The notes under the pieces are model-generated. The model had not been told where the DNA came from and searched no databases. It worked only from the letters and a program-made list of their open reading frames with translations. The translations under genes were made by a program, and so were the position numbers. Below are positions 8,227-43,180 of a DNA stretch of 64,000 bases, piece after piece; within the stretch, counting starts at the first letter, position 1; each line of letters starts with the position of its first letter. The stretch is from Candidatus Xianfuyuplasma coldseepsis (GTDB lineage Bacteria > Bacillota_I > Bacilli_A > Izemoplasmatales > Izemoplasmataceae), in the NCBI RefSeq assembly GCF_014023125.1, contig NZ_CP048914.1, forward strand, positions 958,698-1,022,697, written 5' to 3'.

Positions 8227-9197
8227 GATGCCCTCTTTTTCGTTGTATTTCGAAGGTGTAATTGTACCGGACATACTTTTTGTTTATCCACGTGCTTTCC
8301 ATCCAATACATCCAGTAAATCTTGGGCTACTTCGCTTCCCCATTTACCTTGATCTACATCGATAGTCGTTAATCCACCATTGATGTATTGGCTAATATCA
8401 ACATTATCAAACCCAATAACACTGATATCTTCAGGAACCGAAATACCGTATTCCATACATCCTTTGATAAATCCAATCGCCATTTCATCATTGGCACAGA
8501 ATATTGCTTCAAATGGTAGTGTGCCTTGGAGTTGTTGGACAAGTTCATAGCCGCTACTTTCGGTAAAGTTACCAAAGTAGACTTTCTCTTGAATCGAACC
8601 ATTCGATGAGATGACATCATGGAATGCACGATAGCGTTCATCATCGACAAAACTACCAACAATACCGGATAAATAGGCAATCGTTTGATGGCCTTCGTCG
8701 ACCAATTGTTGTGTTGCTAATTTTGCTCCTGTATAGGAATCCAACATATGGGAATATGTGTGTTCATCGCCATTATCTAACCGGTCTAACACAAACACGG
8801 GCATACCCAAACGATTGGCGTGTTCAATCACTGAGTCCTCCACTTGCGGACACATAATGATTGCCGCATCAATTTGACGTTCCCGAATCATCCGTTTCGC
8901 ATTTTGGCTAAATGATAGGATTAAGTGATATTTACTGTTGTTGATGACGCTCGCAACACCATCATAGATTTTATGATATACCGGTCCGGTAAATCCAGAA
9001 ATGAAGAATCCAATATTGTTTGTCGATTTGTTTTTTAAGTTCCGCGCTGCAGCGTTAGGATAGTATTTCAATTTTTTCGCTACCGCCCAAATTTTGTCCT
9101 TTGTCACTTGGGGGATGTTGTCGGAATCATTTAGTGCATAGGATACCGTAGATACACTGTATCCACTTGCTTTCGCGACATCTTTTATCGTTACCAT
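8223..9197 (-). CDS. LacI-family transcriptional regulator
   Basis: This 324-residue repressor has an N-terminal helix-turn-helix and hinge (VTIKDVAKASGYSVSTVSYAL, then YYPNAAARNLKNKST) and a periplasmic-binding-protein-like effector domain, which is the full family length. SD AAGGAGGGA precedes the ATG. The gene is embedded in the operon between the phosphorylase and the GH35 gene, so it is probably autoregulated. Palindromes with the CG-centred LacI-type pattern lie upstream of both carbohydrate operons (28904-28915 and 36911-36930) and are its likely targets. An imported or processed oligosaccharide would be the expected inducer. Operator assignment is inferred. Confidence 0.93.
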   Translation of the reverse strand: MVTIKDVAKASGYSVSTVSYALNDSDNIPQVTKDKIWAVAKKLKYYPNAAARNLKNKSTNNIGFFISGFTGPVYHKIYDGVASVINNSKYHLILSFSQNAKRMIRERQIDAAIIMCPQVEDSVIEHANRLGMPVFVLDRLDNGDEHTYSHMLDSYTGAKLATQQLVDEGHQTIAYLSGIVGSFVDDERYRAFHDVISSNGSIQEKVYFGNFTESSGYELVQQLQGTLPFEAIFCANDEMAIGFIKGCMEYGISVPEDISVIGFDNVDISQYINGGLTTIDVDQGKWGSEVAQDLLDVLDGKHVDKQKVCPVQLHLRNTTKKRAS

Positions 9198-9209: not shown

Positions 9210-12200
9210 TTACATGGTATATAGGTCTATTATATAATCTTTTTTACCATCGTTAAATAACTCTTTATCAATGGCAATACCGCCCATGCGGTACGGATTT
9301 TGTAATCGTGTAAATGGCACTTCTTGTCCATTTAGGTAAACAGAAGTGATGGAATAATCTTCAGCTTGTAAATGATACTTGAGCGTGAATGTAGCTTGTT
9401 GGGATTGATACGTTACTTCCAAACCATCAAGATCCGATGGAATTTGTGGATCAAATTGCAAACTATTTTGTGTTTCTCGTATACCTAATGTGGAGCCAAT
9501 CAGTTGATTAAGATAGATTCCAGGCCCACTGGAGTAGACACGCCAACCACCTTTTACACCGATGTCTCCGGTATATAGTTTATCAAACTCGTCCATCGCT
9601 TGATAACGGGTTAGGAAGTGTCCGTCACTACTACTGAAATACGCGTTTGCCTGACGTGGCATTGCATTGCTAACCGTATCCGTTATATTGATTGGATTGA
9701 TTTTGAAGAGTCCGTTATACGCCGCTTCTTTGTTACCAAACTTCGCCATTGCTTCAATGTAGCGAATGTGGGCATGGACATACTGTAATCCAATTTCTCT
9801 TCCGAAACAAGCACTGGTTTCCGCACGTTTAAAGTAGGTGTTTAATCCGCCTTTATACGGGATGGTACGATTCATTAATCGGACACCATCGGGATGGGTT
9901 AAGTGATTCAGAATCAATTGATTCATGTGTTGGGCTTGTTCTTGATCAAACATCTCACCAATGATTCCACGGTTCATCGGAAGTAGACGATACTTCATAT
10001 TCGTCACATCATCATCGGGGTGAATCATATAGGTTATTTGACCTTCATCAATGTATAAGAACCCCGCAGGAACCTGGTCCTTAATCACGTAGCGATTGTA
10101 ATCCATCTTAATGTTTTTGGCAAATTCTTGAAGATAGTTAGTATAATCAGAATCCACTGTTTTGATTGTTTCGGCGAACAATGTGAATGCTTCATAGGTT
10201 AACGCGGTCGTCCAACCGCTCACCATTTTTTTCCGTAATTCGGGATTGGCCGGTTGCAAGGTATCATCCCAGTCCCCATCGCCATAACAACTTAATGCCG
10301 TTCCTTCAATAAGGTTATCTTCGATGTATTGAACTTCGGTTTTGACATGCTCAAATAGGGATGAGGTTTCGGTTGTAAAGGTGAATCCATTTTTTGTTGT
10401 ATACGGTACGTGTTCCTCTAGAATCGACACATCACCGGTCGCTTGTAAGTAAAGAGCTAAACTGCGTAACGGCCATACAATGATATCTCCGTGGGCATCA
10501 CCCGCTTGAATGGATGAGTAACGATCAAACATGAACCACTGTGGCCAACTTCCAGTTTCCAGATGTTGATGGGAAAAGATTTTCAGTAACATATGACGTA
10601 AGACATCATAATGTCCAGCAGCGAAGAACAGCTCAAATGGTCCTTGACAAACATCCCTTGTTCCCCATGCGGCTCCACCGTATTGTTCCAAACCGTGTGG
10701 TGAAGCGTAGTGAATTAAGGCATCATGCCAGTACCATCGGATAAGAAGATTCATTTTCTCCACATTATGATATTCATGATGGTCGGTTGGTAGTGATAAT
10801 CGCATATTGCGACTCAGGTCGTTGTAATGTTCTATAAACCGTTGTTTTTCCGCAGAGAACGATCCAACCTTCGTTACTAAAGACGAATGATTAAGTCGTG
10901 CTTGAATCGTAATTCGCATCGAATGTCCGCTTGCCAACACAATGGTTTGGGCTTCGTACGATGCGGGTTCGATAAAGAAGGACTCATCGGTAAATACAAC
11001 CGTCTCTGCATCGACAATCAAATCATACGTTAGTTCTGGATATTTTTGATACGTAAAACTGTGTTCATCCAAGGTGAACGTACATACATTATCATGGATT
11101 TCTTTATGGAATGGTTGTCCGAATTCTTCGGAACCCATAACGACTTGATGTAATACCGCAATCTCATATTGACGCATTTTTTCCGATACGATAGTAAGAT
11201 TCAACCATGCACCATCCAAACCGATGTAGGAGGTGATTGTAAGCATATCATCATCGATTTTATACAACCATTTCGCATAGTTGTATCCCATCTCATAGAC
11301 CGCAGGCATCGTTAGTAATTGATATTCTCCATGTCGTTTAATGAGAATTCGTTGGCCACTGGTTTTGGCAATGTTTAGGCCATTACGTGCATTGCTGATA
11401 AACCGATTAAACGAGGTATTCCCAATCACAACTTGAGAACTAAACAATCCATAGATGTAGTTGGTTGATGCGTATACATCCTCCCGAACATACTGATTGT
11501 TTCCATTTAATAAGATATGACCATGGGATCGTTCGACATGGTGTTCTTTTTCCCCAAGGACAATATGAGCTCCATCACGATCAAAGAAGGATACCAATTG
11601 TCCCTCGATCCATTCTTCTTGGATCTGGTTGGGATAGAGTTGTTCAATGTCGTCGATTGATATCGCTGGCGATGCATATACATGATCGAGGCTTTCATAG
11701 TACGTAATACCAAGTTCTTTTGGTTCCTGTAACTGATGTGATACCGAGTTATAGCGCTCAGCAATCTCATCAACGTATTCCAAGTTCGTTACGCGATCGT
11801 GATAGCGATTAACGAAATGACCATAAAATACATCTTGTATGGTATCCTTTGGAACCAGTAGATGTTTAGCCGTTTGTAACGAACCACACGCATGTTCAAA
11901 CTGATATACTTCATTCGGTAAATGATCGTGTAATAATGCTTCGGGAATATTGGTCGTTTTATAGGATAATCCATAGAACTGATACCCATCCGTTGCATAC
12001 CCAATAACCGGTGTTAAACTACCCAGTTGAAGATATTCCTTTGCCCCTTGATTTTGCAATGAACAAATGGCGTAACCGTTGGGTGATGGATACACAGAAT
12101 GATCAATGTATTGGGAGTTGTACGCTTCATTATTGCGAATGGCACCTTCGTGCTTAATCCCAATATCCTGAACATAAAAGACATCATAGATAATATCCTC

Positions 12201-12533
12201 ATCTAAAGGATTTGTCACATTCACGGTATAAAACCATGTCTGTTCGGTAATGGTTAATACGACCGTTACGTCCAGACCAAATACAATACCTTCGTATTTG
12301 ACGTGGTTTTTGTCGTGTGTGATTCGCATCGAATGATGTAACAATCGTTTGCTTTGATAGCCACCATTTGTATGGATTCGCAGGTACAGATTCGATGCCT
12401 GTCCATCCAAATTGGTACCTCGAAGTTGATTGATCATTTTTTGTTCATAATTGATTTTATGGATGTATCCTGACGGTAGCATGTGAAACTGCAGTCGTCC
12501 GATACCTACCGGGGTTGTATTAATAGTACTCAT
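9210..12533 (-). CDS. GH94 1,2-beta-oligoglucan phosphorylase
   Basis: This 1107-residue cytoplasmic enzyme has the length and layout of 1,2-beta-oligoglucan phosphorylases, which reversibly split sophoro-oligosaccharides with phosphate to alpha-glucose 1-phosphate. A long N-terminal beta-sandwich precedes the (alpha/alpha)6 barrel. GH94 marks are GAAWGTRDVCQGPFE, HLETGSWPQWFMFD, AGDAHGDIIVWP, and the general-acid region GDGDWDD at 751-757. The GTG at 12542 overlaps the SD AGAGGTG, so the ATG at 12533 is taken as the start. It lies directly after the GH3 gene and two genes after a GH144 gene. GH94 includes cellobiose and other phosphorylases; the GH144 neighbours and length favour the beta-1,2 assignment. 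Confidence 0.86.
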   Translation of the reverse strand: MSTINTTPVGIGRLQFHMLPSGYIHKINYEQKMINQLRGTNLDGQASNLYLRIHTNGGYQSKRLLHHSMRITHDKNHVKYEGIVFGLDVTVVLTITEQTWFYTVNVTNPLDEDIIYDVFYVQDIGIKHEGAIRNNEAYNSQYIDHSVYPSPNGYAICSLQNQGAKEYLQLGSLTPVIGYATDGYQFYGLSYKTTNIPEALLHDHLPNEVYQFEHACGSLQTAKHLLVPKDTIQDVFYGHFVNRYHDRVTNLEYVDEIAERYNSVSHQLQEPKELGITYYESLDHVYASPAISIDDIEQLYPNQIQEEWIEGQLVSFFDRDGAHIVLGEKEHHVERSHGHILLNGNNQYVREDVYASTNYIYGLFSSQVVIGNTSFNRFISNARNGLNIAKTSGQRILIKRHGEYQLLTMPAVYEMGYNYAKWLYKIDDDMLTITSYIGLDGAWLNLTIVSEKMRQYEIAVLHQVVMGSEEFGQPFHKEIHDNVCTFTLDEHSFTYQKYPELTYDLIVDAETVVFTDESFFIEPASYEAQTIVLASGHSMRITIQARLNHSSLVTKVGSFSAEKQRFIEHYNDLSRNMRLSLPTDHHEYHNVEKMNLLIRWYWHDALIHYASPHGLEQYGGAAWGTRDVCQGPFELFFAAGHYDVLRHMLLKIFSHQHLETGSWPQWFMFDRYSSIQAGDAHGDIIVWPLRSLALYLQATGDVSILEEHVPYTTKNGFTFTTETSSLFEHVKTEVQYIEDNLIEGTALSCYGDGDWDDTLQPANPELRKKMVSGWTTALTYEAFTLFAETIKTVDSDYTNYLQEFAKNIKMDYNRYVIKDQVPAGFLYIDEGQITYMIHPDDDVTNMKYRLLPMNRGIIGEMFDQEQAQHMNQLILNHLTHPDGVRLMNRTIPYKGGLNTYFKRAETSACFGREIGLQYVHAHIRYIEAMAKFGNKEAAYNGLFKINPINITDTVSNAMPRQANAYFSSSDGHFLTRYQAMDEFDKLYTGDIGVKGGWRVYSSGPGIYLNQLIGSTLGIRETQNSLQFDPQIPSDLDGLEVTYQSQQATFTLKYHLQAEDYSITSVYLNGQEVPFTRLQNPYRMGGIAIDKELFNDGKKDYIIDLYTM

Positions 12534-12544
12534 AACGTTCACCT

Positions 12545-14752
12545 CTATTTTGTGGCAATTGTCGCTTGGAAATGAATGGCATTGGATGCACGACCAAGCA
12601 GTATATGATAACGACGTTGTTCGACAACATCGTTCATGTCGATATTATAATAAGATAATGATTCATAGGGTAGTTGGAGGGTAACTTCTAACGATGTATG
12701 GGCTTTGATAAACACTTTTTTAAACTGTTTCAACTCCAATACTGGACGACTGACACTAAATGATTCCGCCTCAATATAGAGTTGTAGGACATCATACCCA
12801 TCATAGTTCGACGTGTTTGACACTGTGCAAGAAACGGTTAATTGTTCGCCTTCACGAAGGGTGTCTTGTGATACACGATAATTGGAATATTCAAATGTGG
12901 AGTAGGATAATCCATATCCAAACGAATACAGTGGAGTATTGGGAGAATCCAAGTACTTTGATGTATAGTAATTGTTTGGATCTTTTGCTGGTCTACCGGT
13001 AGGGAAATGATTGTAGTAGACAGGAATTTGTCCGACACTTCGTGGAAACGACATTGCCAAACGACCACTTGGATTATTGTCACCAAACAGTGTATTTGTC
13101 AGAGCAGGACCACTCATTGTACCTAAGAACCAGCTATTGATTAACGCATCGCAGTTCATTGCATACCAATTAATTAGTAAGGGTCGTCCACTAAATAGAA
13201 TCGCAATAATTGGTTTCTCAAGTGTTTTTAGCTCTTTGGCTAATGTGAGCTGTGCATCGTAAACATCCAAAATGGTTTTTGAAGAGGCTTCGCCACTTTC
13301 CCACTGATGTTCCCCAAACGCTAGAACAATCACATCTGACGTAGATGCAACATCCAATGCTTCTTCAAGTTGTTCATTGGCTATCTCTTTGATGGAACAA
13401 CCTTCGGCATAATTCACATTTGCACCAGATTCTTGTAAGGCATCCAGTAACGTAACGGTATCTTCATTTCGTGCTTTTCCACCCCAACCACCAACAACAT
13501 GATGACTCGCTGCAAATGGACCAATCAGAGCAATTTTTTTGTCTTTCTTAAGTGGTAAAACCCCATTGTTCTCTAGCAACACAAGGCTCTCTTCAGCTAC
13601 CTTTAGCGCATGTTCTAGTGCACGAGGTTGAAGGTAATACTCTTCAAAATTCGGGTATAAATTCTTATAGGGATTATCAAATAATCCTAACCGATATTTT
13701 AGCGTTAGAATGTATCGCACGGCTTCATCTATATATGTTTCAAACTCTGGATCCTCCTCAACAATGGAGTCCAAATGATCAATATAGGAAGACGAGATAA
13801 TCTCCATATTAAGACCGGCTTTGACGCATAATTTTGCCGCGTCTTTTTTTGTGGTTGCGAGTTTATGTTCAACAACTTCAGTCGTCGATGCATAGTCGGA
13901 TATCGTCACACCATCGAATTTGTATTCATCACGGAGAATCGTCCGCAGAAGAAAGGCGTTGGCACTTACAGGAACCCCGTCGTACAGATTAAAGCCACTC
14001 ATAATCATGGACGCACCTGCTTCTAAACCCGCTTTAAATGGTTGCAGATATACTTGACGTAACATACGTTCGGACATATCTACAGTATTATAATCCCGTC
14101 CGGCTTCACTCTTACCATAACCGACAAAGTGTTTGAGACAAGATGCCATTGTATCGTAGGATAACAAGTTATCTTGTTGGAACCCTTTGACATAGGCCTT
14201 CGCCATTTCACTTGCTAAAAAAGGATCTTCCCCAGGAGATTCCATCACGCGTCCCCAACGAGGGTCTTGGACGATATCAAGCATTGGACTGAACGTTAAA
14301 CTCGTACCACTATGACTGGATTCATATGCAATGATTTCACTTGCTTGTTGTATCAACTGTGGATTAAAGGTCCCACTTAAGGCTAGATTAATTGGGAAGC
14401 CTGTCCGGCATCCATGAATGATGTCATTCATGAAAATCAAGGGAATACCTAGTCGCGTTTCGTGTACTGCGGTTCGTTGTAATTCATAGGCAATTTCATT
14501 GTCATATGTACCAACAAAGTTACCCGCTAGTCCATCACGAATTAACTGAAAGGAATTGTTTTTCTCAAAATCTGGACCAAATGCAAATTCATGACTAAAA
14601 GCCGACAAGTACATTTGTCCGATTTTTTCTTGTAGATTCATCCGTTTTAATAACGACTCCACATCCTTCTTAATTGACGCGTCTGAACGCTTTGGTAAGG
14701 GGTCGCGGGATATGTGTTTCATCTCTTCTAATATTGTTTCTTTACTGCGCAT
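12545..14752 (-). CDS. GH3 beta-glucosidase, probably sophorose-active
   Basis: This 735-residue cytoplasmic GH3 enzyme has no signal peptide. The first domain has LTFSPMLDI, DPRWGRVMESPGEDP, KHFVGYGKSEAGRDY and the nucleophile Asp286 in GVTISDYAS. The second domain has GEHQWESGEASS, and the C-terminal fibronectin-III-like domain starts near LREGEQLTVSC. The length is typical of three-domain GH3 enzymes. It sits between GH144 and GH94 genes, as in described beta-1,2-glucan loci such as that of Listeria, where a GH3 enzyme hydrolyses sophorose and short oligomers. It would release glucose from chains too short for the phosphorylase. SD AAGGAG precedes the ATG. Confidence 0.9.
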   Translation of the reverse strand: MRSKETILEEMKHISRDPLPKRSDASIKKDVESLLKRMNLQEKIGQMYLSAFSHEFAFGPDFEKNNSFQLIRDGLAGNFVGTYDNEIAYELQRTAVHETRLGIPLIFMNDIIHGCRTGFPINLALSGTFNPQLIQQASEIIAYESSHSGTSLTFSPMLDIVQDPRWGRVMESPGEDPFLASEMAKAYVKGFQQDNLLSYDTMASCLKHFVGYGKSEAGRDYNTVDMSERMLRQVYLQPFKAGLEAGASMIMSGFNLYDGVPVSANAFLLRTILRDEYKFDGVTISDYASTTEVVEHKLATTKKDAAKLCVKAGLNMEIISSSYIDHLDSIVEEDPEFETYIDEAVRYILTLKYRLGLFDNPYKNLYPNFEEYYLQPRALEHALKVAEESLVLLENNGVLPLKKDKKIALIGPFAASHHVVGGWGGKARNEDTVTLLDALQESGANVNYAEGCSIKEIANEQLEEALDVASTSDVIVLAFGEHQWESGEASSKTILDVYDAQLTLAKELKTLEKPIIAILFSGRPLLINWYAMNCDALINSWFLGTMSGPALTNTLFGDNNPSGRLAMSFPRSVGQIPVYYNHFPTGRPAKDPNNYYTSKYLDSPNTPLYSFGYGLSYSTFEYSNYRVSQDTLREGEQLTVSCTVSNTSNYDGYDVLQLYIEAESFSVSRPVLELKQFKKVFIKAHTSLEVTLQLPYESLSYYNIDMNDVVEQRRYHILLGRASNAIHFQATIATK

Positions 14753-14770: not shown

Positions 14771-16123
14771 TTATTCCTCAGCTGTAATCGGGGTGATTTC
14801 AATTCGTTCCATTCCGTTTTGAACATATTCACTTTGCATGAAGTAGGTCCATGTTGTTTCGTCGAGATAGTTGGATAACATCAATACGGTAACACCTTTA
14901 TCGATACCGAGACTATCCTCAGCAATCCACACTTCCGTGCCAATATCAAAATTATAGGCATCTTTGAATCCATAATCACCAATTAATCCCTCGATGGTAT
15001 AGAAGTAATTCATTGCTGCAATGGTTTCTTCTGGAGTAAAGACGATACTGCCTAAGGCACCTGCGGGTGGAATTGTTCCATCATTTAAGTGAGAGGCATT
15101 ATTGTATCCAGATGGTGCAGCCCCATATTTTCCACTGTAACCACTTGGTCCATCGGAAGCTGTCATCCCCCAGGAATTTTCGCCAAAGGTACTGAACTCA
15201 TCGTTATGATCAATGGCATAGTTACGATTGGCAAGTGTTGCATGAATACTGTTTTCAAACCAGTTCACACCATCGGCATCTTCGGTATTACGAAAGTCCA
15301 CAAATGCATGACTGAACTGATAGGTAAACAAGCTTCCAAACCAGCTGTGGATAAACACCTCTCCGTCGCCATAATTTTCATTGTGACGAATAAACGCATC
15401 GTATACGGTTTTGTCGATACGATACTCTTCGGTCGGTGTTCCTGCACCTAAGACATAGAGAATCAATTGTTCCGCGTAGAAATCCCAATGTCCCGCAAAA
15501 CCACTCTCAGGACGATAGCCCATATAGAACTGATCATTTGAAGGATCGATGTACCAGGTCCAATCAATCTCAGCGTATAAACCATCGGCTTTGGTTTTCG
15601 CTGTTCCACCAAAATACTCACCAGCGGTAATCGCACCAGCGATAAACAACGCTGTATCAATTACGGATACTTCGGATGTTCCGGCACGTTCTCCGGTTGC
15701 TTTATTTAAGAAGTGGTAGAAGAAGCCCGAATAGTTATCTAAGTTCTCGAAGGTTTCCAACGTTTTTATAACACGTTCTTCCCCTTCTTCATGGGTGATC
15801 CATCCGTATTCCACACCAATAGGAATCGCTGCGAGGCCAAAACCAACACTAGCGATACTGGATAAATTGGGATTGTTGGGATAACGGTCGTTAATTAAAC
15901 CATATCCACCACTGTCTTCATTGGTGTTCGCAAGTTCCCAAAAGAAATTAAAACTCGCTTCCATTTCTTGTAATATTCGTTGCTCGTCTTCGGTATATAC
16001 CCGAACACATTGTTCTCCTTGTAAGACCTCATTGGCCGCACATTCTGGCAGTGGTTCAGCCTTGGTGCAGGCACTGAGGAAAAGGACAATGAAGAGGGTT
16101 GCTATTATTGTAATTTTTTTCAT
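14771..16123 (-). CDS. GH144 endo-beta-1,2-glucanase-like lipoprotein
   Basis: This 450-residue surface lipoprotein (lipobox ending at Cys19 in LFLSAC) belongs to the glycoamylase-like/GH144 family, whose characterised members cleave linear beta-1,2-glucan. A short Cys-pair linker (CAANEV...EQCV) precedes the (alpha/alpha)6-barrel. Conserved blocks are SIASVGFGLAAIPIGVE, SVIDTALF, QFSHAFVDFRN and NSWGMTASDGPSGYSG. It starts two bases after the permease stop and is followed by GH3. It would produce sophoro-oligosaccharides outside the cell for the importer. Paralogues are at 37912-39312 (also a lipoprotein) and 31213-32469 (cytoplasmic). Endo or exo mode cannot be read from sequence. Confidence 0.87.
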   Translation of the reverse strand: MKKITIIATLFIVLFLSACTKAEPLPECAANEVLQGEQCVRVYTEDEQRILQEMEASFNFFWELANTNEDSGGYGLINDRYPNNPNLSSIASVGFGLAAIPIGVEYGWITHEEGEERVIKTLETFENLDNYSGFFYHFLNKATGERAGTSEVSVIDTALFIAGAITAGEYFGGTAKTKADGLYAEIDWTWYIDPSNDQFYMGYRPESGFAGHWDFYAEQLILYVLGAGTPTEEYRIDKTVYDAFIRHNENYGDGEVFIHSWFGSLFTYQFSHAFVDFRNTEDADGVNWFENSIHATLANRNYAIDHNDEFSTFGENSWGMTASDGPSGYSGKYGAAPSGYNNASHLNDGTIPPAGALGSIVFTPEETIAAMNYFYTIEGLIGDYGFKDAYNFDIGTEVWIAEDSLGIDKGVTVLMLSNYLDETTWTYFMQSEYVQNGMERIEITPITAEE

Positions 16124-16125
16124 AG

Positions 16126-18006
16126 TTATTCTCCTGTAATTCCGGAACGGTCGACGCCTTCAACAAACCAACGTTGTAATCCGAAATATAGTAGTAGTAA
16201 TGGGAGGACACTAACCAGTGTACCCGCCATGTATATCGCTTCATTTAGTTCATCTTCAAATTCGGCACCATTGGTATCCACATTACCGAACTGCTCTCGG
16301 AAACTCGCCGCAAATCGACTTAATTGAATCGGCAAGGTTCGTGCATCTTCCATGTATAAACTTGTTAGGTACGTTTCATTCCAGTACCACACAAAACTAA
16401 ACAAGAAGACGACAATCAACGATGGAACAGCTAGTGGAATCGCAATCCGGAAGAACACTTGTAACGGTCCAGCTCCATCCACCAACGCAGCCTCATCAAG
16501 AACTTTTGGAATCATGTTGAAGAATTGATAGAAAATCATAATAAAGATCGTCGATCGAATTCCTTGTCCAAATAACGCAGGGTAGACAAATACACCTATG
16601 TCGCCTAAGATTCCGAGATCACGATACATCAAGTACGTTGGAATCATTAGGACAGGTGCCGGAATGATAAAAGTAAACAGAATTAAGACAATGACAATAT
16701 TTTTAAATTTAAAGTTGAATCGACTTAGTCCATACCCAATCAATGCGGTTGAAAATACTTGAGCTAGAGATGGTAACAAGGCAATTGTGACCGACTCCTG
16801 CAATGCATTCCAGAACCCAATCGTTTTAAATGCTTTCGTGTAGTTTTCTAAATAGATTTCGGAAGGAATTAATCCAACACTGCTATTGAGGACATCTTGT
16901 GGGGACTGGAGACTGATTAATCCGAGATAGATAAACGGATAGAGGAATGTGAATCCTACGGAGATAATCAAGAGATAGACAAACACCCGAAAGACAATGC
17001 CATCCGTTCCTTTCCGTCCAACCAGTCGTTTTCTCACCGACTGTACTTTCGGATTGGTATGGAACCAGTCTTTTTTTACGTCATAACGCATCATATCAAA
17101 CGCATAGTATGTCCGGTCCAACGTGATTTTGACTTTTCCTGGTTTACGAATAAAGAACAACAGGAAGAAGAAGATAACAATCAGTGCGAGTGCTCCGAAA
17201 TAGATCCACACAAGAGCAGCACTAAATCCAAATCCAGCAAACTCATCGGTGAAATTAAACATGTAATTCTTGATAATGATAATCACGTTATTATCGGCAA
17301 AACCGGCAAGTAGTACAAGCGTATAAATCATATTGATTAAGATAATCGGTTTTAAGAACGGAAGCGTTACTTTCCAGAATTGTTCCCATGGACTCGCTCC
17401 GTCAATCTCACTGGCTTCGTAGATCTCTTTATTCATTTTCTGCAAGATTACTAAGTAAACAATAATCTGAACTCCGGAGAACCAGAACATGTAAATTAAA
17501 TTATTAAACACTTGGACGATAATCGAACCAAATTGACGACCGAAAATCTCACTAAAGATTTGAATAACTTGATACTGTTCAATTCCTGGTAAGATGATCG
17601 CTCCTTTACCAACAAGTTCCGCCATAACCGGCCCACTAACAATAACAACCGGTAGGAAGAAGATGGTTCGGAAGAATCCTTTTCCTTTTAAATTGGTATT
17701 TAAAACCAGGGCAAAGATCAGAGCAAACACGTTGATAATAACAATCATCAACATCGCATCTTTGATAAATTCCCACAGGGCTAAAATCATCACCCGGTCG
17801 ACAACAAATGCTTGCTTATAATTCGCAAACCCAACATACTCCAGTTCAATTCCAGAGGTTGGAATACTGACAAAGTTTAAACTTAAGAAGAACGAATAGA
17901 TTATTGGGTAGAACGTGAACACAGCAAACCCAATAATCCATAGGGATATAAATCCATACCCAAGTAAGTTCTCCCGTGTCTTCATTGAAATTCGTGATTT
18001 TTTCAT
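16126..18006 (-). CDS. Fused double sugar ABC permease (MalF-like + MalG-like)
   Basis: This single 626-residue polypeptide contains two complete carbohydrate ABC permease halves. The first (about 1-300) has the ATPase-docking loop EASEIDGASPWEQFWKVTLP; the second (about 340-626) has LDEAALVDGAGPLQVFF. A charged linker with two hydrophobic flanks (around FIRKPGKVK...VRKRLVGRKG) joins them. These subunits are usually separate proteins. The open frame extends to a GTG at 18018, but that codon lies inside the SD AAAGGTG, so the ATG at 18006 is preferred. It is the third permease gene of the operon; the others are at 22222-23085 and 23097-24047. Sugar uptake is likely. Confidence 0.88.
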   Translation of the reverse strand: MKKSRISMKTRENLLGYGFISLWIIGFAVFTFYPIIYSFFLSLNFVSIPTSGIELEYVGFANYKQAFVVDRVMILALWEFIKDAMLMIVIINVFALIFALVLNTNLKGKGFFRTIFFLPVVIVSGPVMAELVGKGAIILPGIEQYQVIQIFSEIFGRQFGSIIVQVFNNLIYMFWFSGVQIIVYLVILQKMNKEIYEASEIDGASPWEQFWKVTLPFLKPIILINMIYTLVLLAGFADNNVIIIIKNYMFNFTDEFAGFGFSAALVWIYFGALALIVIFFFLLFFIRKPGKVKITLDRTYYAFDMMRYDVKKDWFHTNPKVQSVRKRLVGRKGTDGIVFRVFVYLLIISVGFTFLYPFIYLGLISLQSPQDVLNSSVGLIPSEIYLENYTKAFKTIGFWNALQESVTIALLPSLAQVFSTALIGYGLSRFNFKFKNIVIVLILFTFIIPAPVLMIPTYLMYRDLGILGDIGVFVYPALFGQGIRSTIFIMIFYQFFNMIPKVLDEAALVDGAGPLQVFFRIAIPLAVPSLIVVFLFSFVWYWNETYLTSLYMEDARTLPIQLSRFAASFREQFGNVDTNGAEFEDELNEAIYMAGTLVSVLPLLLLYFGLQRWFVEGVDRSGITGE

Positions 18007-18014
18007 ACGATCAC

Positions 18015-20183
18015 TCACCTTTCAACCTTGTAATCAAGTGCTTCAATCGTCACCTGATTACCGGTGGTATAGTCATCGTTTGAATAGTTCACGTAAATGA
18101 CGACATCATTGCTATAGGTTACTTTCACAACCCCTTGAGCCAGTACTTCACGACCGACAATCTCTTCACCAGCGGTATACATGAACGCATCACTAATCTT
18201 GTCGTAGGTTGCATAGATGTAGTTGTTCAAGTTCCCATAGTAGGTCGCATATAACTCACTACTCATCGTTTTCGATAGTAAGTGACTCGGTTGATCGGTA
18301 ATTAAGAACGCAGGATAAACACCAAAATCAATCAATCGTAATAAATCGATATTAATGTTTGGACTGAAATTAAGATATTGGGAATACATCGGCATATACC
18401 CACTCAAGATGATTTGTTCAAACGGAACACTATCGGTAAAGAAACGACTCCGGTTGTGATACAGTGCACTTTGGAAATACAGCGACGTATTGTCCCACAT
18501 GTAGTAATTGGGTCGTATTTGTGGCATCGGTTTAAAGACCAACTCATCGTATAAGGCAATAACCTCTTTCCGAGACATCCCTTCTTTGGTATTGATGTTA
18601 TTGGAAATACCATCAAGTAATACTCCACCATACTCATTCAAGCGATCCATTGCTTTTGGGAATTCCTCACGAAACGCATCAATATCGACATAGTATTGGA
18701 AGTACTCTCCCCGTTGAATACCGACTTGTGCAGGTGTCATATTGATTAGTTGTAGGGTATGTCTAGGAACTACCGAACTATCGGTATAATGTACCGTTGG
18801 ATCGTAGTAGAAGAGGACATCAAGATTTTTCAAATCTGATGCTCGTCCAACTTGACGATCAAAGGCATAATTATCAAATGAACGATCGCTGTATCCACCC
18901 TTGTTGTAGCCACGCATGGAGTACACAATATTGTCAACACCATTACTAACAAGGTCTTTGTTTATATCTAATAAAGCATTCGTCGAGGTCATAATATAGT
19001 TGTTTTTAAACAATAAACCTTGTTCATATTCTTTGGCTAACACATCGATATGAATCGATGGTTCACCACTGGTTCTTGTTGTTAAAATACTTTCTTCGAT
19101 AAGATAATCTTTAAAGACATTGGCCATACCCACATAATTCGCTTGATCTTCTTTCAAGAAATGGAATGATACATGTGGATTGTAATCTTTGATATCCTTC
19201 TCATATATGGTGACACTATTCCCACCACTAACGTTTTGTATATAGTTTTCACGCAGTAAGAAGATCGCCGAAGCCAAATGGAATTCCGCTTGGAACGTTG
19301 GTGGTTTGTAGTTATACTGAGTATATTCACTACCCTCTTCAATGATTGCTAAAAAGCCATTCTCATTAACGCCATAGACACTACCAAATAGTGGATAGTT
19401 CAACATGGTATCATGAGATGAAATCTCACGGTATTTATCTTGTGAATAATACCGCGCCACATACGTACTGTTTACTGGGGACGATTCGGTAAAACGAATC
19501 AATGCTCCATTCCCCGATGGGACAAACATATATCCCGGAATATCATCTTCATAAGAACTACCTAAGAATTCAAAGAAGGTAATTTTAGTGATTTTATTAA
19601 CGCCATATTCATCCACCTTTTCTGTATCCATAAAGACGTCAAATCCATCCTCAAACAACTCGATGGAATACTCGAGATAGAATTCTTCTTCTTCAAAATC
19701 CACTTCAAAGTGAATCGTGTTTCCCGAAATGGTATAATCCACTTCCGGGTTTTCACTACTACGACGATGAAGTAACGAAGTCCCTTGAGGACGGTTTTCC
19801 TCATCGATGTAATCAATATAAATACTACTTAATATACGCCGACGCCAGGAACCAGATAGTTCATAATCATCAATATTGATAACGTCGGACGCCCAGACAA
19901 ACCCGGTATCTTTATCAACGAATCGTACCGCAAGTCCATCAGGATTTAAGTACATTTCATAATTGTTGTTGTCCAATACCATGTCAAAATCATCCATGTT
20001 GACAACACCTTGTTCATACGGGGTATAATCTTCCAATTGGGTAAATAAGTTCGAATCAATCAGGGTTGTTCCCTGCTCTAAGAATGTGTACGGATCATCC
20101 GCAGCCGCTTCAACAGAGTTCGCGAAGAACAATAATACAACCATACCAAACGCGATCAATGTAACCATACGTTGTCGAATCAT
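18015..20183 (-). CDS. DUF5696-like exported protein of the sugar-import operon
   Basis: This 722-residue protein has an N-terminal signal peptide or anchor (hydrophobic to about residue 24, then EAAADDPY). I recognise it as DUF5696-like: a beta-rich N-terminal half (about 40-330), then a region that looks like a TIM barrel (MRGYNKGGYSD, LLDGISNNIN, RPNYYMWDN), as in several glycosidase-like folds. No catalytic pair can be named with confidence. Its ATG overlaps the stop of the NHL/Yip1 gene (ATGA), and the fused permease follows. Tight coupling to transporter genes suggests an extracytoplasmic partner or glycan-processing subunit of the importer. The function is not established. Confidence 0.72.
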   Translation of the reverse strand: MIRQRMVTLIAFGMVVLLFFANSVEAAADDPYTFLEQGTTLIDSNLFTQLEDYTPYEQGVVNMDDFDMVLDNNNYEMYLNPDGLAVRFVDKDTGFVWASDVINIDDYELSGSWRRRILSSIYIDYIDEENRPQGTSLLHRRSSENPEVDYTISGNTIHFEVDFEEEEFYLEYSIELFEDGFDVFMDTEKVDEYGVNKITKITFFEFLGSSYEDDIPGYMFVPSGNGALIRFTESSPVNSTYVARYYSQDKYREISSHDTMLNYPLFGSVYGVNENGFLAIIEEGSEYTQYNYKPPTFQAEFHLASAIFLLRENYIQNVSGGNSVTIYEKDIKDYNPHVSFHFLKEDQANYVGMANVFKDYLIEESILTTRTSGEPSIHIDVLAKEYEQGLLFKNNYIMTSTNALLDINKDLVSNGVDNIVYSMRGYNKGGYSDRSFDNYAFDRQVGRASDLKNLDVLFYYDPTVHYTDSSVVPRHTLQLINMTPAQVGIQRGEYFQYYVDIDAFREEFPKAMDRLNEYGGVLLDGISNNINTKEGMSRKEVIALYDELVFKPMPQIRPNYYMWDNTSLYFQSALYHNRSRFFTDSVPFEQIILSGYMPMYSQYLNFSPNINIDLLRLIDFGVYPAFLITDQPSHLLSKTMSSELYATYYGNLNNYIYATYDKISDAFMYTAGEEIVGREVLAQGVVKVTYSNDVVIYVNYSNDDYTTGNQVTIEALDYKVER

Positions 20184-22222
20184 ACGATAAACACCTCCCT
20201 AAAGATATCAAAGATGAACTCAAATAGTTGAGATAGTAAGATACTAACAATCAGATATAGAATAATCGCAATAATCATCACGAAGAATGTTAAGAAGATA
20301 TTGACAAACAACTCACCGTATTTAAAGTTGTTCAATTCTTTGATCATCACGAGGAGCAAGACAATACTATACCCCATCATAATCAAGTTGGAGAACTGGA
20401 AGACAAAGGCTTCGTTATAGGTTAAAACATTACTTAAGATATCGATTGGTATTTTAAACAAGAAAATCGGTGTTAAAGCAAAGACAAATCCAATAAAGAT
20501 ATCACGATAGAATGCTTCTCCATTTTGAAGCGTACTTACCAAGTAGTTGGCAACACCAAACAACAGTACCGGCACACTCCATTTAAGAAGTTCATAACTA
20601 AACACCAAATCCGCAAACGTATTTTTGAATAAATATCCGCGAATATAATAGTTAGAAAGGATATTTAGTAAGATAAATATCACATACATACCAACCGCTG
20701 TACGAAGCCTATATCGCTGTTTATACTTAATGTGATAGACCGCTTCAATTGGATGTTTTAACACACTTAACTGCAACCGGAGTTCGTTGTATAATTCATA
20801 CTGCAGTAGTTTTTCATGAAGTTCCTGTTTCCAGGCGACGTATCGATCTTTATATCTCGTTTTATCAAAGATACGAACGCCAGCATACAGTACAATAAAA
20901 GTTATCACAATCGGCATTATCCATGCTGAAATCCACGCATCACGAATCTCCCAATAAGCATTGGAATAGCCCTCTTTATTATTGGCAATGCGATAACTTT
21001 CTAATGATAATTCAAACTCTTCATTCCGTTCATAAATCTTACCTAAACGTGAATGCGCAATGGCGAACAATGAATTTTGACGTATGATTTCTTTGAATAG
21101 GATTTCCGACTGTTCGTACTGTCCGGTTTTATACATTTCAATTGCTGACAATACCAAATTCGCAAACTCGGTTTTACTAAAGACTTGAACATTATTGGCT
21201 TGGCCATCTAAGACCCACACATCACCACGATTATCCACCGCAACTCCAGTAGCCAGTTCAAATTCTCCATTACGGAGACTATTCACTTCTTGACGACCAA
21301 AGGTAAATAACAAGTTCCCAAAACTATCAAAGACGCTGATAACGGTGCGGACATCCTCACCGCTACTAACGGTATAGATGTTACCGTCGCCATCAATCGT
21401 AATGTCTTGATAGTTGGGATCCATAAATTGATATTCTGTTAATATATTGTTTCCTTCAATATTCAACTTTTTCAATGGTGTTACGTACTCATTCCGAGTA
21501 ATCGTATACAGCAATCCTTTGGTATCAATTGCCATATTTGTTGCAGGTTTGGGTCGTAAAGATGCGAATTTTTCCCGTTGTTCCTCACTCATCAATGCAC
21601 GATTGATTAAGAGTTGCAACGAAATCGTCACATCATTGATTCCAAAGTATCCCAAGAAATCCCCATTCGCATCCATCTGAATAATACCGTTGGATCCACC
21701 CTCAGTAATGACATAGATGTATCCCCGTTCATCAACGGCGACTTTATAGGGTTCGTACGGAGCTTCTAATTCGGTCCCAAACAATGGTTCATCAGGACGA
21801 CCAATCGAGCGAACAAATTGGAGATCCGCATCAAAATGTAAGACGAGATCCGTCGCTGCATCAGCGATAAACAACTCCCCTTCATCGGTCAGGAAAATCC
21901 CCGTTGGTTCCGCGAGAAGTTCATGGGTTAGTTCCGAGTGTTCCCGGGTTTCTTGATTGTACATGTAAATCCGACCATTACCCGTATCGGCAATGTAGAC
22001 AACATCATCTAAGATAAAGATATCTTGAGGGGCTGAAAATCCCTCATTTAAGATAAACGTTCCTTCATACGCTGTGGCCGTTCGAACCAAACTGGACTCG
22101 AGTCCAATTGTATAGGTTCGATACGGTATGTATTGAATCGGCGTATCTGCTTGAATGGCTCTGGGTGCTTGCAACAGAAGCAGAAACAATACAATCAGTA
22201 AACTACGACGTAAGAGGCGCAT
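20180..22222 (-). CDS. NHL-propeller/TPR/Yip1 membrane protein
   Basis: This 680-residue multi-domain protein has a signal peptide (about 1-25) and an extracytoplasmic NHL-type beta-propeller (about 50-345; repeated PQDIFILDDVVYIADTGNGRI-like blades, as in PTGIFLTDEGELFIAD and ATGVAVDNRGDVWVLD). A TPR-like pair (about 350-420, with AIAHSRLGKIYERNEEFELSL) and a membrane helix follow. A C-terminal multi-spanning Yip1-like domain (about 500-680) ends it. The start codon shares one base with the stop of the permease upstream (TAATG). The layout suggests a scaffold or sensor beside the sugar importer, with its propeller outside the membrane. The role is inferred only from operon position. Confidence 0.75.
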   Translation of the reverse strand: MRLLRRSLLIVLFLLLLQAPRAIQADTPIQYIPYRTYTIGLESSLVRTATAYEGTFILNEGFSAPQDIFILDDVVYIADTGNGRIYMYNQETREHSELTHELLAEPTGIFLTDEGELFIADAATDLVLHFDADLQFVRSIGRPDEPLFGTELEAPYEPYKVAVDERGYIYVITEGGSNGIIQMDANGDFLGYFGINDVTISLQLLINRALMSEEQREKFASLRPKPATNMAIDTKGLLYTITRNEYVTPLKKLNIEGNNILTEYQFMDPNYQDITIDGDGNIYTVSSGEDVRTVISVFDSFGNLLFTFGRQEVNSLRNGEFELATGVAVDNRGDVWVLDGQANNVQVFSKTEFANLVLSAIEMYKTGQYEQSEILFKEIIRQNSLFAIAHSRLGKIYERNEEFELSLESYRIANNKEGYSNAYWEIRDAWISAWIMPIVITFIVLYAGVRIFDKTRYKDRYVAWKQELHEKLLQYELYNELRLQLSVLKHPIEAVYHIKYKQRYRLRTAVGMYVIFILLNILSNYYIRGYLFKNTFADLVFSYELLKWSVPVLLFGVANYLVSTLQNGEAFYRDIFIGFVFALTPIFLFKIPIDILSNVLTYNEAFVFQFSNLIMMGYSIVLLLVMIKELNNFKYGELFVNIFLTFFVMIIAIILYLIVSILLSQLFEFIFDIFREVFIV

Positions 22223-23085
22223 TATTTCAGACCTGAATGAGCCATTGTGTTCATGACTTTACTTTGCAAGAACATGAAAATCACAAGGTTCGGGACAAAC
22301 ATAATCAACGTTGCGGCAGCACCTAATCCCGCAGCAGCAACACTATTGCTAATGTTGGTGAGTGTTGACATGTAAAAGGCAAACGTTTGTTTTAATTCAT
22401 CATTAACGTAAATCGTAGATGTAACGGTATTATTCCACGTTGCTTGGAAACTGAGTATCGCAATTGTCGCAACCGCAGGACGAACCAGTGGGAAAACGAT
22501 TTTTGATAGGATGTATACGTCTCCAGCACCATCGACTTTGGCGGCATCAATCAGTTCATCCGGTACTTGATCAATAAACTGTTTTACCAAGAACAACCCA
22601 ACCGGAATCGCAATCATCGGCAACACATGGGCAGCCATTGTATCAATAATTCCAATATTACTTATGACTAAGAAACGTGGAATCGTAACGGCAACAGCAA
22701 CAAACATTAAGGCAATTTTGTTTACTTCAAAAATAAACTTCTGTCCCTTAAATGTTTTCTTGGATAATACGTATCCTGCCATGGTACTCAGTAAAACACT
22801 TAGTCCCACAACGAACAACGTCACGATGACACTGTTCATGAAGTACCGGGCAACTGGTAATCCATATTCGACAAAACTAAAGATATCCCGGAAGTTCTCA
22901 ATGGTCGGACGACGAACAAAGAACCGTGGTGGGAATGCGAATAGTTCATCAATTGGTTTAAATGCAGTCGAGAAGATGTACACAATCGGTAGTGCCATAA
23001 AGACGGCAAATGGACCTAAGAATAAATAGAATTTTAACTGTGATTTATGAAATCTACGAGGATTAAAGTTGGTTCCTACAGACAT
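22222..23085 (-). CDS. Carbohydrate ABC transporter permease, MalG/AraQ type
   Basis: This 287-residue inner-membrane permease has six hydrophobic helices and the docking loop LIDAAKVDGAGDVYILSKI followed by VFPLVRP. N-terminal FKPIDELFAFPPRF is typical of the CUT1 second permease. It pairs with the gene directly upstream (23097-24047). SD GGGGGTG precedes the ATG. It is distinct from the fused double permease of the same operon, so the operon encodes the equivalent of two permease pairs. The expected substrate is a beta-glucan oligosaccharide, from context. Confidence 0.92.
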   Translation of the reverse strand: MSVGTNFNPRRFHKSQLKFYLFLGPFAVFMALPIVYIFSTAFKPIDELFAFPPRFFVRRPTIENFRDIFSFVEYGLPVARYFMNSVIVTLFVVGLSVLLSTMAGYVLSKKTFKGQKFIFEVNKIALMFVAVAVTIPRFLVISNIGIIDTMAAHVLPMIAIPVGLFLVKQFIDQVPDELIDAAKVDGAGDVYILSKIVFPLVRPAVATIAILSFQATWNNTVTSTIYVNDELKQTFAFYMSTLTNISNSVAAAGLGAAATLIMFVPNLVIFMFLQSKVMNTMAHSGLK

Positions 23086-26997: not shown

Positions 26998-28719
26998 TTA
27001 GTCTTCAAGCATTGATAATAATAATGCGTTGTATGCTTTGGCAAACTCGTAGTTGATTGCGGCTTCTAATTCAGGAGTCATGTAATCAGAATAAACGATT
27101 CGTCCTAATTGAGAATCCCAAATTAAGTCACCAATTGATAAGGTTGATCCTGGATCGTTATCTGGTCTTGAGATGGTTGCATCAATACCAGTATCATACC
27201 AGAAGCGTGCCCATAAGAATCCAGGGACAAATTTGTTTCCTTCGTTCAGAACGGTAACTTCACCTGTAGCAGCAGCTTCGAACCATTCTTGAACACCAGC
27301 AACTGGGTAATTTTCAAACCATTTGTCAACGATTGCTTGTGTCGAGTTTACTGGTAATCCAGCGATTGATAATGCACTTTCACCATTTTCGGTATCTGGT
27401 ACAGTATTTTCAACGATGTCAAAGCGAGCGTTAATTCCATCAGCTCCAAAGCTTAACCATTTTGCAACTTCAAATGCACCTTCTAAGTTGTCGGTTGTTT
27501 TTGAAATCGTCATGAAGTCTTGAACACCAACAACGTTTCCACCTGGTAATCCAACAAACTGAAGATCGAATCCAGCATCATCGGCATTGTCTTGTAATGA
27601 AGTAGCCCATGTTCCATCCCAGTTGAATGCAGCAAGTCCGTTACGGAATGCGAATCCATCCCAGTTTGAACCGAATAATTGTTCACGTTCAGATGGTTGG
27701 TCTTCGAGTGGTCCCGTAGGAGCTGTGCTATATGCGCTAACAGACCATTGGTTGCTAACGATACTAGCAGCTTCGGCTAATGCATCTTTCATTACTTGGC
27801 TGTTTAGTAAGAATTCTTCACCATTGTAGACAAAGTGTCCAATTCCTAGTGGTGTTTCAGCTTCTTGGTCTAAAACAGCAGGTAACCAGTTAACGATGCT
27901 TGTTGGAATGGTGATACCTGCAGTAGATGTACCATCGGTACGTGTGGTATCAGTAGCAGCTTCAATTGCAGCAATCCATTCGTCATAGGTGTAATCTAAG
28001 GTTGTAAAGTCGGTTGTAATATTTGCATCATCAATTAAGTCTAAGTTCGCGAACATACCTAGGTAGTTTGTTGAACTTGGAATTGCAAATACTTTACCAT
28101 TGTACGTAACGGCATCTCGTAAGTTTTGAGGAATGTCTGTCCATTCATCATCTGCTTCCGCAACGGATGTGATGTCACCAGCATAACCAGCAACGATAAA
28201 GTCTGGTACGTTACCAGATAATACTACGTCTGGGAAGTCTCCTGCAGCAGCACGTGTCGCTAAGAATTCATTGTAGTTTCCTTCGTACTCAACGATTTCG
28301 ATTTCGTACATAGGATTTGTAGCATTGAACTCAGCAATTAAACGACGTGTTAAGTTGTTTGCTTCTGCTGTACCAACGTTCCAACCAGCGTAAGTAATTA
28401 CAGTACGAGGCCCATACTCAACAGTTATGGTAACTTCAACTTCAACTTCGTTACCATCACTATCTGTTACTGTATAAGTTACTGTATACTCACCAACTGT
28501 GCTTGTATCAACGTCTCCTGTAACAACGATATCAGCTGTTAAATCGCCATCTTCAGCGTCTTCAGCTGTTACACCATCAAGTGCGTCGAATGTTGTGTCA
28601 ATTTCAACTGTTTGATCAACAGCACCAGCAAATACTGGAACCCCTGATTCTTCCTCTTTACAAGCTGTTAGGCTAAACGCAAAAAGTCCAACCAAAGCAA
28701 CAAGTAATAATTTTTTCAT
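26998..28719 (-). CDS. Sugar-binding lipoprotein with N-terminal Ig-like domain
   Basis: This 573-residue lipoprotein (lipobox LTAC, Cys20) has an Ig-like domain of the DUF5011/HYR type at about 33-105, with the usual AEDAEDGDLT and VGEYTVTYTVTDSDGNEVEV stretches. A family 1 sugar-binding protein follows (TYAGWNVGTAEANNLTRRL onward). AAGGAGAG sits just before the ATG at 28719; a longer frame to 28809 would begin in the -35 box and is rejected. It is the first gene of the 15-gene operon, so probably the most abundant product. The Ig-like domain may act as a stalk through the envelope. Ligands are likely sophoro-oligosaccharides. Confidence 0.93.
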   Translation of the reverse strand: MKKLLLVALVGLFAFSLTACKEEESGVPVFAGAVDQTVEIDTTFDALDGVTAEDAEDGDLTADIVVTGDVDTSTVGEYTVTYTVTDSDGNEVEVEVTITVEYGPRTVITYAGWNVGTAEANNLTRRLIAEFNATNPMYEIEIVEYEGNYNEFLATRAAAGDFPDVVLSGNVPDFIVAGYAGDITSVAEADDEWTDIPQNLRDAVTYNGKVFAIPSSTNYLGMFANLDLIDDANITTDFTTLDYTYDEWIAAIEAATDTTRTDGTSTAGITIPTSIVNWLPAVLDQEAETPLGIGHFVYNGEEFLLNSQVMKDALAEAASIVSNQWSVSAYSTAPTGPLEDQPSEREQLFGSNWDGFAFRNGLAAFNWDGTWATSLQDNADDAGFDLQFVGLPGGNVVGVQDFMTISKTTDNLEGAFEVAKWLSFGADGINARFDIVENTVPDTENGESALSIAGLPVNSTQAIVDKWFENYPVAGVQEWFEAAATGEVTVLNEGNKFVPGFLWARFWYDTGIDATISRPDNDPGSTLSIGDLIWDSQLGRIVYSDYMTPELEAAINYEFAKAYNALLLSMLED

Positions 28720-28780
28720 AATTCTCTCCTTATTTTTATTTTTTTTAAACGATTCATGAAATCGCTTACTTGATAAATTA

Positions 28781-28809
28781 ATTGTATCACTATCTGTTTC
28801 TAATGTCAA
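28781..28809 (-). promoter_or_regulatory. Main promoter of the beta-1,2-glucan operon
   Basis: On the minus strand a perfect TTGACA (28804-28809) lies 17 bases from TACAAT (28781-28786). It is the strongest vegetative-type promoter seen in the window. It lies about 60 bases upstream of the first start codon, with CG-centred operators further upstream. Confidence 0.82.
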
Positions 28810-39312: not shown

Positions 39313-39339
39313 GGATATCACTCCTATCTAGATATGTTT

Positions 39340-43136: not shown

Positions 43137-43162
43137 TGTTATTGTCCTTTCACACACTTCTG

Positions 43163-43180
43163 ATACTACCATAATAGTAT
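43163..43180. promoter_or_regulatory. Inverted repeat in the divergent GH2/AraC control region
   Basis: ATACTA and TAGTAT flank six bases, close to the minus-strand -10-like TATACT/TATTAT of the GH2 gene, which has no good -35. A weak -35 next to a repeat fits an activator-dependent promoter. The AraC-type protein encoded divergently is the natural candidate. Confidence 0.35.

What the first reader, a model, noticed from the sequence alone, without database searches (positions are those of the whole stretch)
18015..20183. DUF5696 protein may be an unrecognised glycosidase-like subunit
The N-terminal beta-rich half followed by a probable TIM barrel resembles the layout of several retaining glycosidases. 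Its fixed place in an importer operon suggests an envelope enzyme or a catalytically dead sugar-binding subunit.
Basis: inference. Interest (0 to 1): 0.6.

Follow-up and report, generated by a model that had tools for sequence, protein, structure and literature searches.

The report
Disarmed glycosidase in a sugar importer
A bacterial protein of unknown function has the fold of sugar-cutting GH129 enzymes but has lost most of their catalytic machinery, and it is encoded in a fixed seven-gene module with two pairs of sugar-import channels, so it is more likely a sugar-holding or assembly part of the importer than an ordinary enzyme.

Summary
The ORF at 18015-20183 (minus strand, 722 aa, DUF5696/PF18952) is real.

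The proposed paired barrel acids are not a family feature. The nucleophile position is acidic in only 73 of 121 members (Asp524 here). The acid/base Glu is missing, as are the His/Asp residues of the GH129 active site; all are invariant in 27 true GH129 sequences. Canonical retaining catalysis is therefore unlikely.

The gene sits in a fixed module: tethered solute-binding protein, permease pair 1, NHL/TPR/Yip1 protein, DUF5696, permease pair 2. The exact order was found in 64 of 79 loci and in all three copies in this genome; neighbouring glycosidases vary. DUF5696 is its fastest-diverging member.

Best reading: a membrane-attached pseudo-glycosidase serving as sugar-binding or assembly subunit of a double-permease importer (here probably for beta-1,2-glucan oligomers), resembling in logic the SLC3 heavy chains of animal transporters. 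Function and binding are inferred, not tested.

The parts
18015..20183 (-). DUF5696 protein, 722 aa, GH129-fold pseudo-glycosidase
   Evidence: PF18952 E 2.8e-109; AF2 model and fold search
20121..20180 (-). N-terminal hydrophobic helix (residues 2-21), signal or membrane anchor
   Evidence: model helix 2-21; hydrophobic segment in 116 of 120 members (heuristic)
19149..20054 (-). N-terminal beta-sandwich domain (about residues 44-345), holds the conserved GYxxPDGSGA motif (window GYMFVPSGNGA, residues 217-227)
18183..19058 (-). Distorted TIM barrel (about residues 376-667)
   Evidence: VIA matches to GH129 and GH13
18612..18614 (-). Asp524, position of the GH129 nucleophile; acidic in 73 of 121 members
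18501..18509 (-). Asn559-Tyr560-Tyr561 after barrel strand 5, where GH129 has the acid/base Glu
18018..18182 (-). C-terminal beta domain (about residues 668-722)
26998..28809 (-). Second solute-binding protein with Ig-like domain, 603 aa
24052..26973 (-). Large tethered solute-binding protein, 973 aa
23097..24089 (-). MalF-type permease of pair 1, EAA loop present
22222..23085 (-). MalG-type permease of pair 1, EAA-like loop DAAKVDGAGDVYILSKIVFP
20180..22222 (-). NHL beta-propeller / TPR / Yip1-like membrane protein
16126..18018 (-). Permease pair 2 fused in one 630-aa ORF, two EAA loops
14771..16123 (-). PF10091 protein (Pfam 'Glycoamylase'; taken as GH144-type from general knowledge)
12545..14752 (-). 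GH3 protein
9210..12542 (-). SOGP/GH94-type glycoside phosphorylase
8223..9197 (-). LacI-type regulator

Best explanation
DUF5696 here is a pseudo-glycosidase: an extracytoplasmic, probably membrane-attached protein that descends from the GH129/GH101 line of alpha-glycosidases, has lost the acid/base Glu and the His/Asp active-site set, and now works as a non-catalytic subunit of an ABC importer. The importer module has a membrane-tethered solute-binding protein, two MalF/MalG permease pairs (each with ATPase-coupling loops; the ATPase is encoded elsewhere), an NHL/TPR/Yip1 membrane protein and DUF5696. Proposed mechanism: the barrel and beta-sandwich hold or guide the oligosaccharide, or clamp the complex, between binding proteins and permeases. 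In this locus the cargo is probably beta-1,2-gluco-oligosaccharide. Shown here: the fold, the loss of catalytic residues, the fixed gene order, the EAA loops. Inferred: sugar binding, physical membership of one complex, the cargo.
For: AF2 model pLDDT 87.5, pTM 0.89. Foldseek best hit ZgGH129 5opq, E 3.5e-32, then NagBb E 2.5e-22. VIA Z 26.3 over 562 residues against Z 17.4 for the best GH13 entry. A3 profile against PDB sequences: NagBb E 6e-4. Profile-profile with genuine GH129 proteins 98.5%, E 2.5e-15, 503 columns. Catalytic and active-site residues lost, while 16 acid/His positions of the barrel are conserved in 27 GH129 proteins at mean identity 0.44; a DUF5696 set at mean identity 0.42 keeps two (Glu385, Asp584), and none is kept across all 120. 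Gene order fixed. All four permeases carry EAA loops in nearly every locus. The host genome has three ATPase candidates with the TOBE_2 domain elsewhere. Median identity to the window: MalF1 63, MalG1 61, MalG2 49, MalF2 44, SBP 41, NHL/Yip1 34, DUF5696 27 percent. Neighbouring glycosidases differ between loci.
Against: No binding or interaction data exist. Asp524 at the nucleophile position is retained in this protein, an acid is there in 60 percent of members, and 25 of 120 members have an acid at both the nucleophile and the 559-561 positions, so activity by a rebuilt site is not excluded for some. The active-site face is not preferentially conserved, which argues against one shared sugar-binding pocket. 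Residue-level structural superposition could not be done.
Confidence: 0.62

Rival explanations
1. It is an active envelope glycosidase with a rebuilt catalytic site (Asp524 as nucleophile, another residue such as Asp584, Glu385 or a substrate group as acid/base), trimming oligosaccharides before import.
For: Asp524 retained in the window protein; Asp/Glu at 583 or 584 in 118 of 121 members; Glu385 and Asp584 at least 95 percent conserved in a 60-member subset; GH129 fold.
Against: The nucleophile position is Gly, Ala, Ser, Asn or Thr in many members; acid/base Glu and the whole His/Asp set absent; no acid conserved at 95 percent in the barrel over 120 members; the loci carry separate and varied glycosidase genes.
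Confidence: 0.2
2. It is a purely structural or trafficking subunit that stabilises or assembles the permeases with the NHL/Yip1 protein and never touches sugar, comparable to the SLC3 heavy chains.
For: The best conserved parts are the beta-sandwich motif GYxxPDGSGA and scattered core positions, not the pocket face; strict coupling to NHL/Yip1 and permease pair 2; high divergence.
Against: A few pocket-face positions are invariant or nearly so (Asn605, Tyr/Phe561, Gly425, Gly430); a 300-residue barrel is an expensive spacer (inference).
Confidence: 0.18

Closest known systems
GH129 (NagBb alpha-N-acetylgalactosaminidase, PDB 5wzn; ZgGH129 3,6-anhydro-D-galactosidase, PDB 5opq)
   Same: Whole-chain fold: beta-sandwich, distorted (beta/alpha)8 barrel, C-terminal beta domain; detectable profile similarity.
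   Different: About 13 percent identity; acid/base Glu missing, nucleophile not conserved in the family, His/Asp/Trp active-site set missing; N-terminal hydrophobic segment; encoded inside an importer module; no hit to Pfam GH129.
GH101 endo-alpha-N-acetylgalactosaminidase
   Same: Related catalytic-domain fold (Foldseek E about 1e-17 to 1e-19).
   Different: Much larger proteins; their catalytic Asp and Glu are not preserved as a pair in DUF5696.
SLC3 heavy chains rBAT and 4F2hc (PMC8537225)
   Same: One membrane segment plus a glycosidase-fold ectodomain, working as partner of a transporter (logic only).
   Different: GH13 family, animal proteins, amino-acid transporters. Kinship beyond the wide glycosidase-barrel superfamily is not claimed, and physical association is untested for DUF5696.
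MalFGK2 / MsmX-type carbohydrate ABC importers
   Same: SBP_bac_1 binding proteins, MalF/MalG-type permeases with EAA loops, ATPase supplied from elsewhere.
   Different: Two permease pairs, a 973-aa tethered binding protein, an NHL/Yip1 protein and DUF5696 in one unit.
Listeria innocua and Ignavibacterium album beta-1,2-glucan clusters (PMC8861115)
   Same: SOGP/GH94, GH3 and a sophoro-oligosaccharide-binding protein (Listeria); GH144, GH94, GH35 and transporter genes (Ignavibacterium). The window has SOGP, GH3, PF10091 and GH35 proteins.
   Different: DUF5696 is not mentioned in the passages of that paper that I read; I did not check those clusters for it.

Membership tests
Pfam DUF5696 (PF18952) | score above the gathering cut-off over the full model | tested here: met
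   366.8 bits against 25.6, model positions 2-612
GH129 | three-domain fold of NagBb/ZgGH129 | tested here: met
   Z 26.3, 562 aligned residues, rmsd 3.3
GH129 | sequence match to the Pfam GH129 model (PF11308) | tested here: not met
   no hit at E 0.01. That model is also weak on the true GH129 proteins L130-L136, so this test has little force
GH129 | catalytic nucleophile Asp after barrel strand 4 (NagBb Asp435; residue number from memory, position consistent) | tested here: inconclusive
   Asp524 in the window; acidic in 73 of 121 members, otherwise mostly Gly/Ala/Ser/Asn/Thr. hhalign pairs Asp with Asp; MAFFT places the strand a few columns off
GH129 | catalytic acid/base Glu after barrel strand 5 (NagBb Glu478; residue number from memory) | tested here: not met
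   Asn-Tyr-Tyr in the window; gap or non-acid in the alignments; Glu in 27 of 27 GH129
GH129 | active-site His/Asp/Trp set (L134 numbering His262, His311, Asp313, His357, Asp358, Trp389) | tested here: not met
   Gln, Ser, Arg, Tyr, Tyr, Arg in the window; invariant in 27 of 27 GH129
carbohydrate ABC importer subunit | conserved linkage to permease and binding-protein genes | tested here: met
carbohydrate ABC importer subunit | physical association with the permeases and effect on uptake | not testable with these tools
   needs pull-down, cryo-EM or gene deletion
SLC3-type transporter heavy chains | GH13-family ectodomain paired with an SLC7 light chain | tested here: not met
   closest fold is GH129 and the partner genes are MalF/MalG permeases; functional analogy only

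The most novel reading that the evidence does not exclude
DUF5696 defines a bacterial counterpart of the SLC3 heavy chains: a GH129-derived, catalytically dead ectodomain that is an obligatory subunit of a previously undescribed ABC importer with two permease pairs, a tethered binding protein and an NHL/Yip1 scaffold, re-used for different glycans in many Bacillota.
Probability: 0.4. Interest if true: 0.75.

Novelty: new variant of a known kind. Interest (0 to 1): 0.56.

Why it matters
It gives a family of unknown function an evolutionary origin and a testable role. DUF5696 matches lie over the cut-off in 55 of 392 sampled genomes of the phylum, of which about seven are really GH129. It describes a seven-gene importer module that I did not find in the open literature searched here (most subscription papers are not in that library). 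If the protein is a subunit, it is an independent case, outside animals, of a retired glycosidase taken into a transporter. It also warns that Pfam's DUF5696 model outscores the GH129 model on real GH129 proteins, so annotation pipelines may confuse the two.

Tried and rejected
Single-sequence search of PDB sequences gave only chance hits; the profile was needed. The weak DUF5696 hits in GH13 genes were followed and are ordinary alpha-amylases sharing the barrel. The stronger hits with about 610-aa ORFs were suspected to be an intermediate family and proved to be true GH129 (profile E 1.2e-223 to NagBb). The Pfam GH129 model as a control search found one genome only, so I used the GH129 alignment A4 instead. 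The idea that the barrel's active-site face would be the best conserved part was tested and not supported. The NagBb structure paper is not held. That the N-terminal part of the 973-aa binding protein is a known CBM is only weakly supported (5 of 27 homologues hit CBM_35); the fold search was filled by the MalE-type domain and leaves that part untested. No paper naming DUF5696 was found. One aligned sequence among the 121 is a GH129 protein; counts given as 120 exclude it.

Full report
What is there. The finding's coordinates are exactly one ORF on the minus strand, 18015-20183, 722 aa. It is DUF5696 (PF18952) at E 2.8e-109 with the profile matched to its end. It overlaps the upstream NHL/Yip1 gene and the downstream permease gene by four bases each, so translation is probably coupled (sequence; inference). 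The host genome is 1.96 Mb and holds three DUF5696 genes. A contig of a genome placed in the same family as the window (G010:C12, 37668 bases) has the length of a contig recorded as Candidatus Izimaplasma, so the window is probably from that group (inference).

Fold. I aligned the window protein with 65 relatives from other genomes and predicted its structure: pLDDT 87.5, pTM 0.89. Foldseek against the PDB puts GH129 first, ZgGH129 5opq at E 3.5e-32 and NagBb at E 2.5e-22, then GH101 and GH36. The second aligner gives Z 26.3 over 562 residues for GH129 and 17.4 for the best GH13 entry, which covers the barrel and C-terminal part only. Sequence profiles agree: A3 finds NagBb in the PDB at E 6e-4, and hhalign with seven genuine GH129 proteins gives probability 98.5 and E 2.5e-15 over 503 columns. 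Those seven were first seen as puzzling partial DUF5696 hits; as a profile they match NagBb at E 1.2e-223.

Catalysis. In GH129 the nucleophile Asp and acid/base Glu follow barrel strands 4 and 5 (NagBb 435 and 478; these numbers are from memory, the JBC paper is not held; PDB titles name comparable mutants in GH101 and ZgGH129). In 27 GH129 sequences these two and a set of His, Asp and Trp residues are invariant. In DUF5696 the nucleophile position is Asp or Glu in 73 of 121 members, and mostly Gly, Ala, Ser, Asn or Thr in the others; the window has Asp524. The acid/base Glu has no counterpart: after strand 5 the window reads Pro-Asn-Tyr-Tyr, and position 561 is Tyr or Phe in all 121. The GH129 His/Asp/Trp set reads Gln, Ser, Arg, Tyr, Tyr, Arg. 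At matched divergence (mean identity 0.42 against 0.44) GH129 keeps 16 acid or His positions in the barrel and DUF5696 keeps two, Glu385 and Asp584; over all 120 members none is kept. Loops on the active-site face are no better conserved than those on the opposite face (1.83 against 1.86 bits). The top conserved block is the beta-sandwich motif GYxxPDGSGA. The alignment near strands 4 and 5 is uncertain by a few residues: hhalign pairs Asp524 with the nucleophile, MAFFT does not. The loss of the acid/base in the window protein does not depend on that, since it has no acid at 557-563; 25 other members do have an acid at 559-561 together with one at 524. So canonical GH129 catalysis is very unlikely for this protein and cannot be a family-wide function; a rebuilt site in part of the family is not excluded.

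Setting. Classification of neighbouring ORFs in the 80 loci found shows one order almost everywhere: solute-binding protein of about 980 aa, MalF1, MalG1, NHL/TPR/Yip1, DUF5696, MalF2, MalG2, then mostly glycosidase genes. The exact order holds for 64 of 79 genes, with many exceptions due to contig ends, rival ORF calls or weak labels (reason inferred). All three modules of this genome keep it, and here MalF2 and MalG2 are fused into one 630-aa ORF. Nearly all permeases of both pairs have EAA loops, so both pairs look able to couple to an ATPase; none is encoded in the module, and three candidates with the TOBE_2 domain lie elsewhere in the genome. The 973-aa binding protein is predicted to be tethered by an N-terminal helix, with beta-strand-rich regions and a MalE-type domain; among its best structural matches is the beta-1,2-gluco-oligosaccharide-binding protein (5ysb, Z 35.5, tied with others). 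Genes next to the module in other genomes encode different glycosidases: PF10091, GH31, GH35, GH3, GH30, GH2 and others. The module is thus re-used for different glycans. Here PF10091, GH3, SOGP/GH94 and GH35 match the set reported for beta-1,2-glucan clusters (PMC8861115).

Mechanism. DUF5696 has a hydrophobic N-terminal segment in 116 of 120 members, seldom with an obvious cleavage motif (heuristic), so it is outside the cytoplasm and may be anchored. It diverges faster than every other module gene (27 percent median identity against 61-63 for permease pair 1). I take it to be a non-catalytic subunit that holds or guides sugar, or clamps the importer; which of these is open. The nearest logic in known biology is that of the SLC3 heavy chains, glycosidase-fold ectodomains that partner transporters (PMC8537225). 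This is a resemblance of working principle, not a claim of kinship.

Verdict. Fold: settled. Loss of canonical catalysis: strongly supported. Importer subunit: well supported by gene order, unproven physically. Sugar binding: inferred. Novelty: new variant of a known kind; I found no paper on DUF5696 in the open library, which does not cover most subscription journals.

Noticed in passing
window:16126-18018 (-): The second permease pair is fused head to tail into one 630-aa ORF with two EAA loops; in nearly all other loci and in the two other modules of this genome the two are separate genes.
   Followed up: partly
L130-L136: Genuine GH129 proteins (profile E 1.2e-223 to NagBb) score higher against Pfam DUF5696 than against Pfam GH129 and pass the DUF5696 gathering cut-off, so annotation pipelines may label real GH129 proteins as DUF5696.
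   Followed up: yes
window:3277-5820 and 29744-31210 (-): Two sulfatases and a radical-SAM protein with a SPASM domain (sulfatase-maturase-like) lie around the glucan genes, so the substrate may be a sulfated or substituted glycan.
   Followed up: partly
window:5833-8274, 31216-34778, 37915-39321, 40887-43172 (-): Two GH35 proteins, two further PF10091 proteins and a GH2 protein make the window a large glycan-use island.
   Followed up: partly
window:24052-26973 (-), residues 60-500 of the protein: The N-terminal 500 residues of the tethered solute-binding protein (beta-strand-rich regions, helical linker) have no clear family; 5 of 27 homologues hit CBM35 weakly.
   Followed up: partly
window:20180-22222 (-); L139:6202-8329: The NHL and Yip1 parts are one protein here but two separate ORFs in L139.
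   Followed up: no
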